NCBI RefSeq assembly: GCF_032854445.1
Contig: NC_088307.1
Location: 10,850,001-10,914,000 of the forward strand
Length of the DNA stretch: 64,000 nt
Reading direction: 5' to 3'
From: Liolophura sinensis
Taxonomy: Eukaryota > Mollusca > Polyplacophora > Chitonida > Chitonidae
Shown: one piece after another, positions 11,616 to 64,000 of the stretch
Layout of the letters: every line of letters begins with the position of its first letter
Numbering within the stretch: the first letter of the stretch is position 1
Program-made: the position numbers and the translations under genes
The notes under the pieces: generated by a model
Databases searched by the model: none
What the model was told of the DNA's origin: nothing
The model's input: the letters and a program-made list of their open reading frames with translations, nothing else

Positions 11616-11976
11616 GCCGGCCCGGATAGCACAGTTGGTAGAGCGTCCGCTTCGGGACCGGTAGATCCAGGATCAATCCTTGGTCGAGTCACACCTAAGA
11701 CTTTAAAAGAGGAAGTTGTAACTTCCTCGCTTGGCGTTCAGCATGAAGGGGATAGTGCAACGACTGGTTGACCCGTATCAGTATAATGGCTCGAGCGGGG
11801 CGGCTTACTTGCCTTCGGTAAGTCGTCTCAGTGATGCAGCACTTAATAAAAGAGCGGTGGAAATCCGTCCTGCAACAAGGAGGCACATTACACGTGCATG
11901 CACCCTAATGATTCCTTCGTCGTCATATGACTGAAAAATTGTTGAGTACGACGTTAAACCCCAAGCACTCACTCAC
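11616..11976 (+). mobile_element. SINE family B, full-length copy with perfect 12-bp TSD
   Basis: 361 bp from ggccggcccggatagcac (A box region ATAGCACAGTTGGTAG) through the B-box-like GGATCAATCC to the cactcactcact tail. It is flanked by TCAATCACAAGG at 11604-11615 and 11977-11988. It serves as the reference for family B here. Confidence 0.93.
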
Positions 11977-23975: not shown

Positions 23976-24325
23976 GTTATTGAGTGAGTGAGTGCTTGCG
24001 GTTTAACGTCGAACGTAACAATTTTTCAGTCATATGACGACAAAGGAATTCTTAGAGTGCGTGTAATATGCTTCCTTTTTAAAGGACGGATTTCCACCGC
24101 TCTTTTATCAAGTGCTGATTCACTGAGGCGCCTTACTGAAGGCAAGTAAGCCTTGCCCCGCTCGAGTCATTATACTGATACGGGTTTCACTATCCCCTTC
24201 ATGCTGAACGCCAAGCGAAGAAGTTACAGCTTCCTGTCTTAAGGTCTTAGGTGTGACTCGACCCAGGATTGACCCTGGGTCTACCGCTCCCGAAGCGGAC
24301 GCTCTACCAACTGTGCTATCGGGGC
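23976..24325 (-). mobile_element. SINE family B, full-length copy
   Basis: Minus-oriented: gagtgagtgagtgcttg tail, cagtcatatgacgac, ggacggatttccaccgc, gaagttacagcttcct, then the tRNA-like head gctctaccaactgtgctatc. A possible short duplication agttat flanks it. Confidence 0.9.
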
Positions 24326-30900: not shown

Positions 30901-33393
30901 TGGAAGGACTCTGGACAACAAAAGAACACCAAAGCAAAATGACTTATTCTTTCGAAAAAATTGATGTAACTCACCGTCTCTGTTCATTTTGACCTCCAGG
31001 CACTTCTTGAAGCGACACGCCTGACACTGATTCCTCCGGGCGACGTCCACCACGCACTGTCCATTCTCTTTACATACATAGTCCAGGTTTCGGCGAATGC
31101 TTCTCTTAAAGAACCCGCGGCACCCGTCACAGCTCTGTACACCGTAATGTTTGCCCGAAGCCTTGTCGCCGCACACCAAGCACAGGCTGTCCATTTTGTG
31201 AGGCGGGGAGTGGCGAGAGTCTGAATAGTCAAAATACAAATTAAGGGCATTTGTTAAAAATGTTTGGCTATGATTTTGGATTTTTTTCAAAAAATTGATT
31301 TAGCCTCAAATAATGAATATTGATTGCTGCTGAATATAATGACTGGGCCATCTAAATGAAGATTAAGCTTAATTTGACAATGAAATGTACGTTGTTTGGA
31401 CGTTGTTATTTTCCTATTACACCAATATACGGTTTTTGTTTTATTATTTTATTTTTCGTTTTTAATTTGTCATGTTCTGCGAAATACCTAAAAGTACAAA
31501 ATGACAAAGCACAAAATACAAAGCAAATCCATGAGATTTTCTAAAACATTTATAAAGTTAGAATTTACAGATAATTAGCTCTCAATAAAATAAAAAAGAA
31601 AACATGAAAGAAAACTAAAAAAACGTCTCGAAAACGGATCAATTATTTTGGGGGGTTCTGCTAAAACATGTGATTACTTGTTATTCCGGTGTTGGTCTAA
31701 ACGTTTAGAGAAAGTGTGGATAATCGGCGTTTTTACACGCATATCAAGGTAGCTGAAGGTGTTAAAAGTTACCGAGCGCTAAGAACTGCTTTTGTCTTCT
31801 TACAGGTAAGACTGCCCCGCGGGACAAGCTCTACCCGCTGTTTCCTTAGACCCCCTGCGTTAAGGTACTTCCGTAATAAGCACCCACTCCAAGCCTTGTA
31901 CAATAGACAAACTCGCCCACCCCAGACCCGGCATTTGTTTGGCTGACAAAAGCTTTATTATTTACCAATGAGATCGTTTACTCTCGGTCAAAAAGCGGCT
32001 TTCAGCTTCTATCAGGTGTTTTAGTGTATACTGCTTTCTTACTTAATGGACTTCCGCGGAAGTTTATTAAAACACATATCAAACAATTTACCATACTTAT
32101 CCTTTGTCGTTAGATTTTCTCTCGTACACCAGAGAACGCAGTTACACCGGCACAAGCACATTCAAACCCCACTAATGTTTTCATAATCTCAAGTTTGTAA
32201 TGACATGCCGCACCTGTGTATTTTGCGATTGATAAAACAGAATGCAGTAAATTTTAATCCGCTTTTAATCGGTCGCAGAATTTGAAAGAATGTGTTATTT
32301 AGTAAATGGGCAAAAAATCAAAAAAATTATACTAATAGCGATTTTTAAAACAATTTATGCGACACAAATAACCTTTTAAAAATATATGGTGTTACCTTAG
32401 TATTTGCATTACGTTTGCTAATGTAAATCAGACATTTCAAAGCACAACAAACTATAAATCAAAATTCCTTCCATGTCTTGCAATAGCAGATTTAGTAAAC
32501 TATTGATTATTATTACTAAGCCTATTTCGATAATTTTTTTTTAAACTTAATATTGGCTTGCTATTTAATTCTGATTTCATTAAACACAGATTTTGAAAGC
32601 CTCCGTTTTATCAAGTAACGTTGTAAAGGTAGCCATATAAAATGGCATTCTGTCACACATATGTAGAATTTATCTTTTGCATCTCTCAGTAGGTTTTAAA
32701 CTTTATACCTTAATTAAAATGCTACTGTCTATATGGCATTACACTAACTAGTCCGGCATGTAATGTAAACAGCCGCGCCATATTTCCCGATAACCCTATG
32801 ATCGACAGACATATCAGATCATAGATTATCATGTCTAGACAACTTATATAGATAGGCACAGAATTTATCCTGTGACACTGTTTACGTGTGTATAGCACAA
32901 AATAAACTCAAGGTATTTAAACAGTGATAGATATAATATAAATTTTAGTGGGTAAATTATCCTAGTTTTACTGGTGAAGTTAGACATCCTTCAAAAAAGC
33001 TGGACAACTGTTATCACATGCAAAAGGTTATAGCGCTTTTTAAACAGCGGATATTTTTCACTCACAAATACTGTAAGACCTAATACATTAGTGAAAGTTT
33101 TAAGATTTTTTCACATTTTTCTTCGACTAATTTTCCTGAAAAGACTTTCAGAACTCTTAAAAACTAAGAATTTTACCAAACGATAGAATAGCAATCTTTG
33201 TGTTGTAAGTCATAATCACAGTCAATGTTTATCGGACGAATTGTACATTCAGACAAAACCGATATCAACTGATTCGAGAATAGTTAACATATTTCAGGTA
33301 TAAACAAATAACAAGCTCATTGGCAAATGATATATCATATTCACCTGGTGTTGACATGAGTTGTGCAGATCCATTCAAATTTGGTATAGCCAT
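26687..33393 (-). CDS. Nuclear receptor, NR2E group (tailless/PNR/FAX-1/HR83 relatives), seven coding exons
   Basis: A DNA-binding transcription factor acting in the nucleus, 492 aa. Exons in order: 33393-33345, 31220-30975, 28965-28836, 28538-28258, 27909-27550, 27341-27171, 26928-26687; all introns are GT-AG and all joins keep frame. The DBD (residues 30-98) has eight zinc cysteines (30, 33, 47, 50, 66, 72, 82, 85), P-box CDGCRG (47-52) and the NR2E hallmark AVQHERAPR right after it (99-107). A Ser/Pro-rich hinge (about 110-295) carries SPKRERR. The LBD (about 300-492) shows [38 protein letters not shown] and [16 protein letters not shown], and it ends in the NR2E-type helix [15 protein letters not shown]2E proteins usually have DGCSG or NGCSG; R51 and the five-residue D-box spacing (C66-C72) point to the FAX-1/HR83 side rather than tailless. 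Exact orthology is not decided. The N-terminal domain is very short. Confidence 0.92.
28966..30974 (-). other. NR2E intron 2
   Basis: 2.0 kb, with a SINE-A tail scrap at about 29112-29160 (gactaaggcgtaaaccacc). The segment 29700-30720 is richer in GC and CpG and may contain regulatory sequence; no exon seen. Confidence 0.4.
30975..31220 (-). CDS. NR2E exon 2: DNA-binding domain
   Basis: One 246-bp exon carries both zinc fingers, [15 protein letters not shown] to CLEVKMNRD, with acceptor ttgactattcag and donor GACGgtgagt. An internal ATG at residue 26 could serve as an alternative start if exon 1 is skipped. Confidence 0.95.
31221..33344 (-). other. NR2E intron 1
   Basis: 2.1 kb, AT-rich except for a GC-richer patch at 31740-31960. 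No exon or repeat family recognised. Confidence 0.4.
33345..33393 (-). CDS. NR2E exon 1: start codon exon
   Basis: Context aaaaaccATGGC, 16 codons ([16 protein letters not shown]), then donor CAGgtgaat in phase 1. That phase joins exactly to the DBD exon (split Asp codon). A TATA-like run (tatatacatatatgtgtat, minus strand, about 33445-33470) lies 55-80 bp upstream. Confidence 0.75.
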
Positions 33394-56739: not shown

Positions 56740-57767
56740 AAACTAAAATTCGTTATCCCCAGACCACAAAGTTGAAAACTGCATCTAGTTTGCATGAATG
56801 TTAAATTTAACTTGTGATTAATTAACATTAATGCGTCCACAGTAGTTCATATGAAAGAATAAAGGAATAACGGTACTGGGTTAAATGAATATATGAAGTA
56901 AATAAAACGCTGATACAATGCTGAAAAGATAACAAAGTAAGTGAGCTGACGTATACATTTTCTAAAACAGCGGATAAACCATATGTATATGCCATATAAT
57001 GTATAAGCTATAAGCAGATTATAATTAAATACTGTATAAATTAGCATATGTTTTGGTTGTTGTTACTCCAAAGGCGAGGAGCACTAGGTAATACTACTAA
57101 ACGGCGGTTTAGTTCACAGAGGGACCATTTTTAAATCCAGAAAGCGAGGAAGAGAGAGAAAACATTGCATGTATCCTTAACAATGTGCTGATTTAGCAAT
57201 CATGGCATTGGACAACTAGAATGTGGAAGTCATAGAATTGACAATCATTCCGCATCCCATAATATGTACCGCAGTGCCTTGTTACATAGATCATAGAGGT
57301 ATAAACACATAAGAAAGTAGAGATATATTTATGCCTCCATACATAGGTCACAGAGGTATAAATACATAAGGAAGTACAAATATATTTATGCGTCCGTACA
57401 TAGATTACAGAGGTATAAATACATAAAGAAGTAGATATATATTTATACCTCCATTCATAGATAGATATATGTAGTAATTATGAAGGAACTGGTGAGTGCA
57501 GTAAGCTTAATAAATTTCCACAGAATCAACCACCAATAATATAATCAGCGTAATCAACAAAGGCGACGACGTGACAAAGTACCTATACAGATTATAACAC
57601 ACCTTGCAAAAGTCAACCACTCCTAAACTGCTCCATAACGTATATGAAGATGTAATGCAATTTCAACCCACATCAGTCGCAGTAGAATCATTTAAAATCC
57701 AGTTATAAGATATAAGAAAAGATTTTCAGACACGAGATTTATGTAGACGTAAGCTGGGGTGATGATT
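56740..57767. repeat. 3' flank of the Ly6-mucin gene with a 57-bp triplicate
   Basis: 57284-57460 holds three 57-bp units (cagaggtataaatacataa, agaagtaga, tatatttat). The rest is AT-rich with no further exon that I can support. Confidence 0.75.
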
Positions 57768-59051
57768 TTACACCTGCGGGTTGCAGAGGTCTTGTTTGCA
57801 GCATCTACCGTGACGAAATCTGACGCCTTGATGGTAATACTGGCGCTGATGGAGAATGTCGTCGGCCATTGATACACATTCCTGCAAACGAGCCAACATT
57901 GGTACTGTGAGCCATGGTCACATATCACATTTGAACTAAAACATTATATACTTCATTCAGTTTAATGAATATAATGAACACATATTGTACCATACAACCC
58001 ACACCCTTCGAATTTGTGACTCTTCTCTCACAATGGCGACACGGGTCCAAGCTGGACTGATCAATGAACTCTGGCAATATGTGAGTATACCGATTAACCA
58101 GTATATCTGCGAAATGATTCCTAGATTTGGCCTTAATTCAGCTCTAACTGGATACTATCAATAGTTTTTCAGTGTGCCCTGGTTCATCTGGGATACGTTT
58201 TTCTTCATAAAGAAAAAAAAATGCTAAAGAAAGCTGTTTATCAGTTTGGCGTAAATTATCAATAAAATAATAAACAAAATAACTCTAACTTGAATATGAT
58301 CGGGAATGTAAAAATACTTACGGTGGATGTCATACAGAATGACTGAGTCTTCCCACCTTGATCTCGTCCAACGAAGCATTGCTGCAATATTTAGAAGTCA
58401 TAGGTCTGTATCATAAGATACAAAATTGCATATTATAGTCTTTTTGTTTTAAATCTTCAGCGTTGTTTTCGAACTTAAATTGTTTTAGGTGTGTTTTTTC
58501 TTCAGATGGTTCATAAAGTTTTTATTTTTTATGTTCACAATAACGATTTAATTAAACAGGCTATACTGTTGATTTTGGGGCAAAGTCCATATTCGCTAAA
58601 GTTTCTCTGTATTGACCAAGTATGTCTCAAATTATTGCCATTCAGAAAATATCAAGCTCGTAACTGTTATGTTTATAGTGTTCAAATGATTCTAAATGCC
58701 GAAAAAGTTATAACTTGACCCGTTTTGTTTTATTAATCTTAAAACCACGTGCACACACGAGGCTATATTTTATAAAATGTAATTATTTTGAATATTCTAA
58801 AATAATAGTCGGGGCCTCCGTGGCTCAGTCGGTTAAAGCGCTAGCGCAGCGTAATGACCCAGGAGTCTCTCACCAATGCGGTCGCTGTGAGTTCAAGTCC
58901 AGCTCATGCTGGCGGCTGTACGTGAGAAGGTCTGCCAGCAACCTGCGGATGGTCGTGGGTTTCCCCCGGGCTCTGCCCGGTTTCCACCCACCATAATGCT
59001 GGCCGCCGTCGTATAAGTGAAATATTCTTGAGTACGGCGTAAAACACCAAT

Positions 59052-59094
<43 letters not shown>

Positions 59095-59361
59095 GTCAAA
59101 ATTCGATTTGATTTGGGCAAAAATCTCCGGTGCAGACACATTAAAAAGCAAGTCTCTTTCCTAGATGTAACATTTTCCAGTCATTATATGAATATAATAG
59201 GACAGTTTCGATCTGATGTTAAACTTCAATGAATCATTCTTTCATCCTAATTCATGAAAATGTTACCCTTACACTCACCTCTCCATTGCCACACTTCACT
59301 GTGATTGAACACGCTGTTTTAAGGGCATCAAACGCTCCGCATTTGTAACATGTCGGCGCTG
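57768..59361 (-). CDS. Three exons of the complete C-terminal Ly6/uPAR domain
   Basis: 59361-59279 (TCYKC to GNGE, cysteines 4, 7, 17, 23), 58381-58322 (QCFVGR to FCMTST) and 57881-57768 (ECVSMADD to CCKQDLCN). In the last exon a second acceptor 15 bases upstream would shift into a frame that loses CCxxxLCN, so I chose the inner one. Confidence 0.85.
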
Positions 59362-62300
59362 CTAGTAACAACAAACATAATAGGCATTAGTAGGTGTAAC
59401 AACGATATATTATATCCATTATTGCGCTCCAGGGCATTGTAACATGTCGCGCATGTGTTTAGTATAAATACACCACATTTGTGAAAAAACTCATTGAATT
59501 AACAAAGTAACATCACGTGATCATCAATTTGAGTTAAAGTAATTATATAATTTAAGACGGATAAAGGCTACATAAGGTTAAAAGATGGCACATCAGGTGA
59601 CCGGAAGCTAGCAAGACACAATGTCCTGGTAAGCACATAATTGAATCAATAGTAACAAACACACCCTACACATATTAGAATGATACAGTTAATTTTACCC
59701 ACGCTCAATTATTTTTACAAAACTGATTGATTGATCGATTAATTAGTGTAATGTTTCACTTATGATTGATGACAACTGGTTTCATAGCTGAGGAAACCTG
59801 ATTCTAATTGAATGTAATTCAACAAAATCATAAACATCGAAATATTATGGATTTATTTATTTTTTAATTAAATATATGGGATCAGTTAATAAATAACACA
59901 AAACCAGGGTACATAAACTATCCACGTTCAAAAAATTAATCCTTTAAATTTAACAGAAAGGCTGTTGCCTGAGTGATGCCAGAATGTATTCTGCCATTAT
60001 AGAAGGTTATTCTGTTAAATATAACACACATATTCTACAAATCCAACATAAAAAAATTCTATTAAACTAACAGAATACTATGTAAAATATGACATACTTG
60101 TTTTGTTACCATAACAGAATACATTCTAGCATCAATCAAACAACAGACTTTCTGTTAAAATTAGCAGATTAAATTTTTGAGTGTATATAAGCTAGTAAGA
60201 AAGTTGTTGACTTTTCGTGTCGTTCTCGTTTAATCAATGTTAAGTAAGTTAATCTTTAATTATTTTATTTATTCATTAATTTATTTACTCATTCATCTAT
60301 TTATTCAACGTTACCTGCACTGATAACGGTCGCTGTAGAGAATAAAATGTAAACAAAAAAATCCATAAGAGTGTATAACAGGACGAGTTTTAACATTTAT
60401 TTACTTATATGTATTCATTTCATTTATTTCATTGACGCTGTATATACTTAATTTGTCACTTATGCTTACAACACAGTTAAAGTCAGTATTGCGGGAGGAG
60501 TAAACAGGAGTGACGAGGCTAAACCATCGACCTGTGACAAGTTGCTCACGAGCTTTATTCTGTCTTATGACCAATACACATATGAACACTATACTTGGGG
60601 AGGACAAGTGGTCTTCAAGGAATGTTGGACTGCGCTATCTGGCACAAGATCGTTGTCAACGGTTTATTGTCACCAAGGTTCCACGAACAGCGAGATCGAA
60701 GGAATCCACATACTTCGTGTCTAAGGCCGGGATTGAACCCACATCCGTGCCTGCTATTGCGACTGGATTTAACTTTTAATGAGTATGTCTAGGTGCAAGT
60801 GTAGAGTTAAAAGAACTGCTAATAATTGCCCCCCCCCCCCAACTCATCATCTCGATTTCCTGAATTTTGCTTGGAATCATAAAAAAAAACAAACGGACCC
60901 AGTTGTGTGAGTGCGAGTGAGTGCTTGGGGTTTAACGTCGTACTAAACAATTGTTCAGTCATTTGACGACGAAGGAATCCTGAGAGTGCGTGTAATGTAT
61001 CTTCTTGTTGCAGGACGGATTTTCACAGCTTTTTTATATAGTGCTGCTTAATCGAGACCACTTACCGAAGGCACGTAAGCCGCCCCGAGTGAGATATTTT
61101 ACTGATAAGGGTCAATCAGCCATTACTATCCCCTTCATGCTGAGCGCCAAGCGAGGAAGTTACAACTTCCCTTTAAGGTCTAAGACGTGACTCGACCTAG
61201 GATTGACCCTAGATCTACCGTCTTCCAAAGTGGGCGCTCTAACAACTGTGCTAACAGCGCCGGTCGGACCCTGTTGAAATATCTCAAGATATCATCATTA
61301 TCATGCAACCCATCAACAGTCTTGGTAATTGTAGAACATACCGGTATTTGTCGGAGTCGATGAAGGCTTTGCTGACGTCTTTATGGGCGACGCTGATTTA
61401 CTGGCTGACATTGTTGTTTTCGCAGCTGGCATTGTCCTAGGCGTTCCAGTTGTCGTTCTCCTGTGCATATCAGTTGTCGGTGTGCTCTGCGTCGCACCTA
61501 ACGTGGTACGAGGCGTCGGAGCTGCCGTTAGACCAGACGTTGCAGCTGACGTTGTGGTCTTCCTTGTGGGCTGTGCTGTCGTTGTGCTTGGCGCCGTGGT
61601 TGGCATTATTCTGCGAGTCGTCGTTGGTTTTGGGCTAGTTGTTGGGCTCGGTGTTGTTTTCACCGTAGATGGTTGCTTCGTAGTCGGTGTCGTAGTAGGA
61701 ATAGTTGCGGGTGTTGTAGCTGCAACACGATTTATATTTTTACAACGACATCCAACGCTAGACATGTACAGTTGATTTTATTTAACAAATTTGTGTTTCA
61801 AAATTATATTGGCGAAAGGTAATAACACCAAGGTATCATAGTGTAAGAATCCTCAGGCTCATGGATAAGCAGGTTTTTTGATCGTGACATTTTAAAAATT
61901 CTGAGATAAAAACAATTAAAAATCGCTTCCCAATGATCCCAGATTTTCACGTAAATAGTATCCAACGAACTTGATGTATGAAGAGTTAAGCAGTCGATGC
62001 TGATTTTCATTGTCACCAATCAGCCTCAATGAGAGTAAATACAGAGTAATGAGGTGGCCTCTTTGACCGAGGTGGTTAGAGCACTAGCTCATGCAGGCTT
62101 CTTATCCGGCCGAAAGTGGACGGCCTGCTGCAACCTGCGGATGGTCGTGGGTTTTCCCCCGGGCTCTGCTCCCACCATAATTATGACCGTCGTCGTATAA
62201 GTGAAATAAAAACAGTCAAATAAATAACAAAATATTGAAAATGCCCTGGACAATGCTGGGACTGAACAAACACTGTGCGTTTACACTATCGAAATACGTG

Positions 62301-62673
62301 CATATTAAACGAGAGACGTTGACTAGCTCTTCCCAGATAAATCTCACTGATGACAAATTACATTTCTACTGACGGGTTTCGTTCTCTTGACATGTCACCT
62401 TGTTTGTCTCAACTGCTGTCTGTCTTTTTCCCTTCTCGAATCTGTCTTTTACTGCACCGACAACGACAACTACATGTACCACAAAGGTCATGTGTATAAA
62501 AGCTTTGGTAGGGTTAATGGACGCCAGAAAGAATAGTGGAACGACTTACTTGGAGGTAGGGCTTTGAATCCGTGACATCTGTTTGACGAGCAGCAGCCGA
62601 CAGTCGCGTAGGTCACGTGATTGAGTGTGGGGTTCCTGTGATTGTTGGCATCGGCTCGAGCTTTTTGGCAGCG
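57768..62673 (-). CDS. Ly6/uPAR-domain protein with mucin-like linker (LU - Thr-rich - LU), 5' partial
   Basis: Exons 62673-62550, 61719-61342, 59361-59279, 58381-58322 and 57881-57768 join with matching phases (1, 1, 0, 0) at GT-AG sites. The first encodes the end of a Ly6/uPAR domain (GCCSSNRCHG). The second encodes 125 residues rich in Thr, Pro and Ser, a likely O-glycosylated stalk. The last three encode a complete three-finger domain with ten cysteines, starting TCYKCGAF and ending CCKQDLCN. The two domain-ending exons both start in phase 0 and have cysteines at positions 2, 27, 28 and 33, so they are duplicates. Ly6 proteins are extracellular, secreted or GPI-anchored. Signal peptide and first-domain start lie beyond or unrecognised in the window. 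The stop follows three residues after the Asn, but CAGgtgtaa there is also a usable donor to an unseen anchor exon. Confidence 0.8.
58811..59092 (+). mobile_element. SINE family A, full-length young copy with 40-bp poly(A)
   Basis: Complete tRNA-like head ggggcctccgtggctcagtc (A box TGGCTCAGTCGG) and B box gagttcaagtcc, body near consensus, then A(40) at 59053-59092. It is flanked by AATAGTC at 58804-58810 and 59091-59097. It lies antisense in a Ly6 gene intron. It is the best reference copy of the family in this window. Confidence 0.95.
59921..60183. mobile_element. MITE (Tc1/mariner-like), third copy
   Basis: Between TA at 59919-59920 and 60184-60185; the 3' end GAGTG is intact and the 5' end decayed (tccacgttcaa). 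The inner TIR tttaaatttaacag pairs with ctgttaaaattagcag. It lies in the large Ly6-gene intron. Confidence 0.85.
60825..60841. repeat. C homopolymer
   Basis: A run of about 11-12 C near 60830-60840. Confidence 0.85.
60904..61262 (-). mobile_element. SINE family B, full-length copy in a Ly6-gene intron
   Basis: Tail gtgagtgcgagtgagtgc, body cgacgaaggaatcctgag and ccttcatgctgagcgccaag, and head gcgctctaacaactgtgc. Likely 12-bp TSD with one mismatch (cggacccagttg at 60894, cggaccctgttg at 61263). Confidence 0.9.
61342..61719 (-). CDS. Mucin-like Thr/Pro/Ser-rich exon of the Ly6 gene
   Basis: Acceptor atcgtgttgcag, donor ACCGgtatgt. Thr is the most frequent residue (runs such as TTTPTT, PTTT, KTTTS), no cysteines occur, and basic residues are scattered. 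The open frame continues 15 codons upstream to an ATG, but the acceptor join to the preceding exon is preferred because phases match. Confidence 0.8.
62052..62228 (+). mobile_element. SINE family A, internally deleted copy
   Basis: Head ggcctctttgaccgaggtgg fused to catgcaggcttcttatccgg (B-box region missing), then body ggatggtcgtgggttttccc and a short AAAT tail. Confidence 0.85.
62229..62549. other. Intron sequence of the Ly6 gene, nothing further seen
   Basis: Between a SINE and the domain-1 exon; no additional exon recognised. Confidence 0.4.
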
Positions 62674-63198: not shown

Positions 63199-63420
63199 TA
63201 ACATCACTGCACTTTCTTGGCTGATTCTGCTTAAGTCATGATATTATAGGGGGCGTGTACTTTGCTACTTTTTTAAGCATATACATGAACAGCTAGAATA
63301 AAACCGTATCTGAGGTAAATTTGATAAAAAGAGACCGAATTTAACCAGTTACATGAAACCATACATCAAATATCATGTACATTGTCGAAGTTGCCCTGGT
63401 TTTACTCTGCCTGCTGTATT
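63199..63420 (+). repeat. Dispersed repeat D, copy 2 (partner 54558-54768)
   Basis: Same landmarks in the same order as copy 1, 8.6 kb away, with a few small indels. A SINE follows immediately. Confidence 0.75.
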
Positions 63421-63423
63421 GAT

Positions 63424-63640
63424 TGATTTATTTATTTGATTGGTGTTTTACGCCATACTCAAGAATATTTCACTTATACAACGGCGGCCAGCAATATGGT
63501 GGGAGGAAATCGGGTATAGCCCGGGGAAAACCCACGACCATCCTCATGTTGCTGACAGACATTCCCACTTACGGCCGGAGAGGAAACCAACATGAGCTCA
63601 CATCGACTGCATTGGTGACAGACTCGGGAGGCGATTTTCT
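63424..63640 (-). mobile_element. SINE family A, partial head
   Basis: Tail gatttatttatttgattgg, body gccatactcaagaatatttc, head-proximal text gaggaaaccaacatgagctc, then breaks off before the A box. Confidence 0.88.
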
Positions 63641-63806: not shown

Positions 63807-64000
63807 CGGGTCCTCCGTGGCTCAGTTGGTTAGCGCGCTAGCGCAGCGTAATGACCCATAAGTCTCCCACCAATGTGGTCGCTGTGAGTTCAAGTCCAGC
63901 TCATGCTGGCTTCCTCTCCGGCCGTACATGGGAAGGTCTGCAAGCAACCTGCTGATGGTCATGGGTTTCCTTCTCCCACTATAATGCTGGCCGCCGTCGT
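63807..64000 (+). mobile_element. SINE family A, running off the window end
   Basis: Complete head gggtcctccgtggctcagtt with B box gagttcaagtcc. The body reaches ctggccgccgtcgt at base 64000, so the tail lies outside. Confidence 0.93.

What the first reader, a model, noticed from the sequence alone, without database searches (positions are those of the whole stretch)
57768..62673. A Ly6/uPAR - mucin - Ly6/uPAR architecture
Two three-finger domain ends with cysteines at identical exon positions (2, 27, 28, 33) bracket a 125-residue Thr-rich exon, and all splice phases agree. Ly6 family proteins normally carry one or several domains directly joined or GPI-tailed; a long mucin-type stalk between two such domains is an arrangement I do not recognise. 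It may display a binding domain away from the membrane or in mucus. Domain 1 has His where the hallmark Asn follows the last cysteine.
Basis: partly seen in the sequence, partly recalled or inferred. Interest (0 to 1): 0.75.

Follow-up and report, generated by a model that had tools for sequence, protein, structure and literature searches.

The report
Secreted four-LU protein with mucin linkers
An invertebrate gene that appears to make a secreted protein of four small three-finger (Ly6/uPAR-type) binding domains spaced by threonine-rich, probably sugar-coated linkers; it is one of a small family in this genome, a new combination of familiar parts whose target is unknown and whose exon joins still need a transcript.

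Summary
Reading past the window edge shows that the two "ends" are the last two of four Ly6/uPAR (LU) domains. Sixteen exons join in frame into 535 residues: signal peptide - LU A - LU B - 22-residue Thr linker - LU C - 125-residue Thr/Pro/Ser linker - LU D - stop, with no GPI tail. Each domain has the ten canonical LU cysteines.

A signal-peptide-like frame in the intron before LU D also joins LU D in frame, so LU D could be a separate small gene. Only transcripts can decide.

The arrangement has support elsewhere in the genome: a gene 6.3 Mb away reads through as signal peptide - 4 LU - 214-residue Thr/Ser linker - 4 LU - stop. On another contig LU pairs lie before SRCR domains, in one copy with a Thr-rich exon between.

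Closest known: CD177 (LU pair - 20-residue linker - LU pair - GPI) and C4.4A/LYPD3 (LU pair - mucin stalk - GPI). Best reading: a secreted, mucin-spaced, multivalent extracellular binder. Function is inferred; no transcript, related species or structure was tested.

The parts
62550..62673 (-). LU domain C, third-finger exon (phase 0 -> 1); C7, C8-C9, C10, with His after the last Cys. Its finger 1 and 2 exons lie past the window edge at window-scale 65131-65034 and 64310-64248
61342..61719 (-). Long Thr/Pro/Ser linker exon (125 complete codons, 62% T+S+P), symmetric phase 1-1
   Evidence: the only Thr-rich frame that passed the scan in 114 kb, both strands
60315..60396 (-). Uncertain: signal-peptide-like frame with a phase-1 donor that joins LU D in frame; either a first exon of a separate LU D gene, or chance. 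Its last 18 nt, behind a good acceptor, would also fit as a phase 1-1 microexon
59279..59361 (-). LU domain D, first-finger exon (CYKC...), phase 1 -> 0
58322..58381 (-). LU domain D, middle-finger exon, phase 0 -> 0
57768..57881 (-). LU domain D, third-finger exon ending ...CCKQDLCNPQV and stop; no hydrophobic tail

Best explanation
One gene encodes a secreted, soluble protein of four LU (three-finger) domains. Shown from sequence: signal-peptide-like start; LU A and LU B directly joined; a 22-residue Thr linker; LU C; a 125-residue Thr/Pro/Ser linker; LU D; stop, all in frame. Inferred: the Thr-rich linkers are O-glycosylated and stretched, so the LU domains act as separate binding heads along a stiff sugar-coated thread, giving multivalent capture of a protein or surface ligand in mucus or body fluid. 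A role in epithelial or humoral defence is the most likely use, because sister genes in the same genome place LU pairs before SRCR domains, a common animal recognition module. Both Thr exons and the short exon after the signal peptide are symmetric (phase 1-1), so splicing could change spacer length without breaking frame.
For: 16 of 16 modelled exons join in frame with AG/GT sites into 535 residues with a start and a stop. Ten LU cysteines in 4 of 4 domains. Pfam LU match to the whole protein, E 1.4e-8; a profile from other LU domains of the genome matches all four. Paralogue C13:4599819-4631241: 25 exons in frame, 936 residues, signal peptide - 4 LU - 214-residue Thr/Ser exon - 4 LU - stop, with no signal-peptide-like frame in the intron after its Thr exon and pN 0.31 and 0.25 against pS 0.72 and 0.78 between its duplicated domains. 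LU pairs before SRCR domains on C4. Mucin-type stalks are established for C4.4A, with 15 putative O-glycosylation sites (PMC7053344, passages).
Against: No RNA evidence. A signal-peptide-like frame at 60396 joins LU D in frame, and two more such frames (69260, 64789) have phase-1 donors that could feed later modules. Ten AATAAA hexamers lie in the intron before LU D, four of them before 60396, while none (nor ATTAAA) lies in the 1268 nt after the modelled stop. Domain C has no Pfam match and B and D fall below the cut-off. O-glycosylation and secretion are untested. Function rests on analogy and genome company. The domain tree is unresolved (1 of 11 inner branches well supported), so a shared ancestral layout is not shown.
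Confidence: 0.45

Rival explanations
1. Two or more separate genes lie in a row, most likely SP-LU A-LU B-linker-LU C-Thr tail-stop, and a second, single-LU secreted protein starting at 60396 and holding LU D. The LU C-mucin-LU D join would then be a modelling error.
For: The frame 60396-60315 plus LU D reads MLKLVL...VISA-APTCYKC...CNPQV-stop without a break. The Thr exon read past its donor stops after about ten codons. AATAAA hexamers lie between (60668, 60559, 60428, 60401) and none after the modelled stop within 1268 nt. LU genes commonly occur in tandem clusters (PMC6600238, passages).
Against: Such start-plus-donor frames are common: 12 rows on the minus and 11 on the plus strand of 114 kb, so about 0.2 is expected in this 2-kb intron. 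The candidate has an Asp inside its hydrophobic core. AATAAA is frequent in this AT-rich intron (ten, many in runs). The Thr exon ends at a phase-1 donor that fits LU D. The paralogue has the Thr exon followed by LU domains with no such frame between.
Confidence: 0.25
2. The main product is membrane-bound: the last LU exon is alternatively spliced to a downstream hydrophobic exon, giving a GPI- or membrane-anchored receptor like CD177 or C4.4A.
For: A hydrophobic frame ending at a stop lies about 100-260 nt past the modelled stop (57507-57662). A GT just after the modelled end and an AG before this frame would join it in phase (by eye). The human multi-LU proteins reviewed are GPI-anchored (PMC6600238, passages).
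Against: Both splice signals are weak by eye. Three other hydrophobic tails occur in the same 7.9 kb. The paralogue also stops right after its last LU domain.
Confidence: 0.1
3. Structural secretion (adhesive, shell or egg-coat matrix) rather than recognition: LU domains act as disulphide-stable knots in a glycosylated matrix protein.
For: Signal-peptide-like start, cysteine-rich, Thr-rich linkers; no catalytic domain found by Pfam.
Against: LU loops are generally protein-binding surfaces (PMC6600238). Sister genes have SRCR domains next to LU pairs. No expression data either way.
Confidence: 0.17

Closest known systems
CD177 (PMC13022285, abstract and passages seen)
   Same: Four LU domains with a flexible linker dividing the chain; the known linker is 20 residues, close to the 22-residue Thr linker here.
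   Different: GPI-anchored; two compact LU pairs; no long mucin segment between LU domains in the passages; LU1 and LU3 have three disulphides, LU2 and LU4 four. Here all four domains keep the ten cysteines and the model is LU-LU-linker-LU-mucin-LU.
C4.4A / LYPD3 (PMC7053344, passages seen)
   Same: LU domains plus a heavily O-glycosylated Ser/Thr/Pro-rich region in one chain.
   Different: The mucin region follows both LU domains and leads to a GPI anchor; here it lies between LU domains and the model has no anchor. The N-terminal LU of C4.4A lacks the 7-8 disulphide (PMC6600238, passages); domain A here keeps those cysteines.
Drosophila multi-LU proteins (2 to 44 LU domains; PMC6600238, one passage)
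   Same: Invertebrate proteins with several LU domains.
   Different: No mucin linkers mentioned in the passage; the sequences were not compared.
GPIHBP1 and SP-10/ACRV1 (PMC6600238, passages)
   Same: An extra exon adds a disordered segment to an LU domain.
   Different: The disordered segment is N-terminal to the LU domain, not between LU domains.

Membership tests
Ly6/uPAR (LU) domain family | Ten-cysteine pattern with CxxC start and CC...C end | tested here: met
   4 of 4 domains; 11 invariant columns, 10 of them Cys
Ly6/uPAR (LU) domain family | Match to curated LU profile over its cut-off | tested here: met
   Whole protein 35.5 and domain A 28.9 bits vs 24.8; but B 14.6 and D 19.9 are below and C has none. 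Toxin_TOLIP, a related model, also passes on the whole protein (26.2 vs 21.2) and A (22.4)
Ly6/uPAR (LU) domain family | LU exon set flanked by phase-1 introns | tested here: met
   4 of 4 domains, except the 3' side of the last, which ends at the stop
Ly6/uPAR (LU) domain family | Two exons per LU domain, one inner intron at the tip of loop 2 (usual gene form, PMC6600238) | tested here: not met
   Three exons per domain, introns just before C5 and just before C7, 4 of 4 domains. This is a gene-structure variant, not a defining fold feature
Ly6/uPAR (LU) domain family | Three-finger fold | not tested
   The spliced protein is not given letter for letter by one stretch of DNA, so it was not sent to structure prediction
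GPI-anchored multi-LU proteins (uPAR, C4.4A, CD177) | C-terminal GPI signal | tested here: not met
   Only three residues follow the Asn after the last Cys; a weak alternative exon is not excluded
GPI-anchored multi-LU proteins (uPAR, C4.4A, CD177) | N-terminal LU lacks the 7-8 disulphide (mammalian members; a zebrafish two-LU cluster keeps it, PMC6600238) | tested here: not met
   Domain A has all ten cysteines plus two more
Mucin-type proteins | Long Ser/Thr/Pro-rich segment | tested here: met
   78 of 125 residues are T, P or S
Mucin-type proteins | Dense O-glycosylation | not testable with these tools
   needs protein

The most novel reading that the evidence does not exclude
This animal has a family of secreted mosaic proteins in which LU domains, usually in pairs, have been shuffled as true mobile modules with mucin exons and SRCR domains, giving multivalent recognition proteins. 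This would go against the review view that LU is at most a 'proto-module' found predominantly alone or in LU-only repeats.
Probability: 0.42. Interest if true: 0.6.

Novelty: new variant of a known kind. Interest (0 to 1): 0.43.

Why it matters
LU proteins are mostly described as single domains, or as LU-only chains on a GPI anchor. Secreted chains with mucin spacers between LU domains, plus LU pairs placed before SRCR domains, suggest that LU can be used as a mobile recognition module in invertebrates. The exon layout gives clear transcript and protein tests.

Tried and rejected
Family search of the own genome with PF00021 gave 0 matches. The tool's controls rang in 0 of 14 genomes, and the LU domains are split over exons of 20-41 residues, so this says nothing. 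A tree of 14 LU domains, to test whether the two C13 genes share one ancestral layout, was unresolved. A PDB sequence search with domain B alone gave two matches up to E 1, LYPD1 (4e-4) and SLURP1 (0.16). Considered and rejected: snake-toxin identity (Toxin_TOLIP matches too, but scores lower than UPAR_LY6 on the whole protein, A and D; on B it scores higher, both below cut-off); a simple-repeat origin of the Thr exon (varied codons); SRCR in the finding gene itself (a loose pattern found none in 114 kb; no profile search was run). First splice choices put the paralogue out of frame after LU 1; two third-finger donors were then moved, so those ends were chosen by frame.

The species was not identified; a lophotrochozoan, perhaps a mollusc, is only my recollection from the repeat element.

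Literature: 10 of 10 paper runs were run (21, 31, 36, 41, 46, 56, 61, 65, 66, 70; one search listed no paper; one search was an input error). I saw listings and, for nine papers, passages found by word: PMC6600238, PMC11595613, PMC6337849, PMC7053344, PMC13409769, PMC13022285, PMC11797021, PMC8242945 and PMC10855680. None of these described an LU-mucin-LU or LU-mucin-SRCR protein. Figure legends of PMC11797021 and PMC8242945 list LU among domains of putative immune receptors, so an LU-SRCR link may already be drawn in figures I could not see. PMC10855680, an invertebrate SRCR survey, has no hit for uPAR, Ly6, LU domain or mucin in its main text.

That was wrong, so the single-gene reading went from 0.55 to 0.45, separate genes from 0.12 to 0.25, the membrane and matrix rivals and the novel case down by 0.02-0.03, and interest from 0.45 to 0.43.
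Full report
What was checked. The finding names minus-strand exons in the last 6 kb of the window. I read the DNA, tested splice sites and frames, and fetched the 50 kb beyond the window edge. The window is C13:10850001-10914000 of an unnamed 609-Mb assembly. Coordinates above 64000 continue the window scale.

The gene model. Sixteen exons join in frame: signal peptide 78768-78726; short exon 77843-77814; LU A 74147-74059, 73596-73525, 72244-72139; LU B 70851-70763, 69976-69905, 69220-69100; Thr linker 1 67926-67861; LU C 65131-65034, 64310-64248, 62673-62550; Thr linker 2 61719-61342; LU D 59361-59279, 58381-58322, 57881-57768 with the stop. The product is 535 residues. Module boundaries are phase 1 and introns inside LU domains are phase 0. 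The ten LU cysteines are present in 4 of 4 domains; A and B have two extra. The finding's cysteine positions, the His after the last Cys of the first domain and the 125-residue Thr exon are right.

Is it LU? Pfam UPAR_LY6 matches the whole protein (35.5 bits, cut-off 24.8, three stretches) and domain A alone (28.9). D scores 19.9 and B 14.6, below cut-off; C has no match. A profile built from ten LU domains of other genes in this genome gives A 69.3, B 69.3, C 33.2 and D 26.1 bits. Of 1000 shuffles per domain that keep the cysteines fixed, 0, 0, 0 and 2 score as high; of 1000 full shuffles per domain the best is 9.3 bits. Much of the signal is cysteine spacing, as expected for this fold. No structure was predicted.

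Chance. A strict search for middle-finger exons found exactly the 4 modelled ones in the gene's 16.2 kb span and 0 in 175 kb of control sequence. Its donor list was set after seeing the models. The Thr exon is weaker on its own: 112 of 2000 base shuffles also leave an open forward frame. Its support is the splice fit, the varied Thr codons, its being the only Thr-rich frame that passed the scan in 114 kb, and the paralogue.

The main doubt. Between the Thr exon and LU D a signal-peptide-like frame (60396-60315) has a phase-1 donor and reads on into LU D without a break. Two others (69260, 64789) have phase-1 donors too. The same rule gives 12 rows on the minus and 11 on the plus strand of 114 kb, so about 0.2 is expected by chance in that 2-kb intron. 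AATAAA hexamers lie before it, and none lies in the 1268 nt after the modelled stop. LU D could therefore be a separate single-domain gene. I give that 0.25. A third possibility is that the last 18 nt are a phase 1-1 microexon of the long gene.

The paralogue. At C13:4599819-4631241 (+), 25 exons join in frame into 936 residues: signal peptide, four LU, a 214-residue Thr/Ser exon (75 T, 40 S, 23 P), four LU, stop. Two third-finger ends were chosen by frame after a first choice failed, and several splice sites are weak by eye. No signal-peptide-like frame lies in the intron after its Thr exon. Its duplicated domains differ less at amino-acid-changing than at silent sites (pN 0.31 and 0.25, pS 0.72 and 0.78; silent sites near saturation). 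One exon fuses the end of LU 7 with the start of LU 8. This gene too is without transcript evidence.

The wider family. Four protein searches of the genome were run. Two of them (17, 44) gave weak matches on C4 (E 0.03 to 1.5), near 18.55-18.71 Mb and 22.98-23.04 Mb; the other two gave none there. Reading the DNA around some of these matches showed full LU exon sets or first- and third-finger exons. In the two places that I read downstream, SRCR exons follow an LU pair. At C4:23.01-23.03 Mb a Thr-rich exon lies between, with phases that fit by eye. At C4:18.55 Mb two SRCR first halves tested and a third set seen by eye follow; phases were not checked there. Four of four SRCR pieces given to Pfam pass its cut-off; of two LU domains from the C4:23.0 Mb cluster one passes (29.2 bits) and one does not (17.0). 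The other copies were seen only as matches or partial reads. The searches score only the best candidates, so family size is a lower bound.

How it most likely works. Shown: signal-peptide-like start, four LU domains, Thr-rich spacers, no anchor in the model. Inferred: secretion, O-glycosylated stretched spacers, multivalent binding, and a role in mucus or body-fluid defence. LU loops are generally protein-binding (PMC6600238, passages). In CD177, LU pairs pack into compact subdomains joined by a 20-residue flexible linker (PMC13022285, abstract and passages), a fair model for A-B / 22-residue linker / C. In C4.4A the mucin region carries 15 putative O-glycan sites (PMC7053344, passages). The defence reading rests only on the SRCR sisters and is the weakest step.

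Compared with what is known. The review PMC6600238 (passages) lists secreted single, GPI single, GPI multi and receptor LU proteins, with up to 44 LU domains in a fly protein. It says LU probably is not a bona fide mobile module but a 'proto-module'. The finding differs in being secreted in the model, in keeping all ten cysteines in the first domain, in having three exons per LU, and in carrying Thr-rich spacers between LU domains. The parts are known and the order is new to me. Ten paper searches (listed under Tried and rejected) showed no such protein, but subscription journals and figures were not seen.

Verdict. The interpretation moves from a display stalk on a membrane to a secreted chain. 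New variant of a known kind, interest 0.43.

Noticed in passing
window about 30979-31221, minus strand: Exon with a nuclear-receptor DNA-binding domain (Pfam zf-C4, 107.9 bits).
   Followed up: partly
window about 58800-59080, 62070-62210, 63400-63600, 63820-63960; also L001 and L002: Several copies of a dispersed repeat with a tRNA-like head and a shared tail, seen by eye; it looks like a SINE.
   Followed up: no
window 24254-24325 (-) and 11620-11691 (+): Two weak tRNA matches (34.2 and 29.2 bits), possibly repeat heads.
   Followed up: no
C4:23005001-23042000 (L015, L012, L016, L008): LU-LU-Thr exon sets repeated in tandem about 17.7-18.3 kb apart with near-identical exons.
   Followed up: partly
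C13:4617572-4618213 (L007): The paralogue's 214-residue Thr/Ser exon holds internal repeats with WSW motifs, unlike the finding's linker.
   Followed up: no
window-scale 79348 (L002), minus strand: A second signal-peptide-like start upstream of the gene's first exon, without a donor in the scan.
   Followed up: no
window 60315-60396, minus strand: Signal-peptide-like frame in the intron before LU D that joins LU D in frame; its last 18 nt could also be a microexon.
   Followed up: partly
window 57507-57662, minus strand: Hydrophobic frame just past the stop that weak splice sites could join in phase, a possible membrane-anchored isoform.
   Followed up: partly
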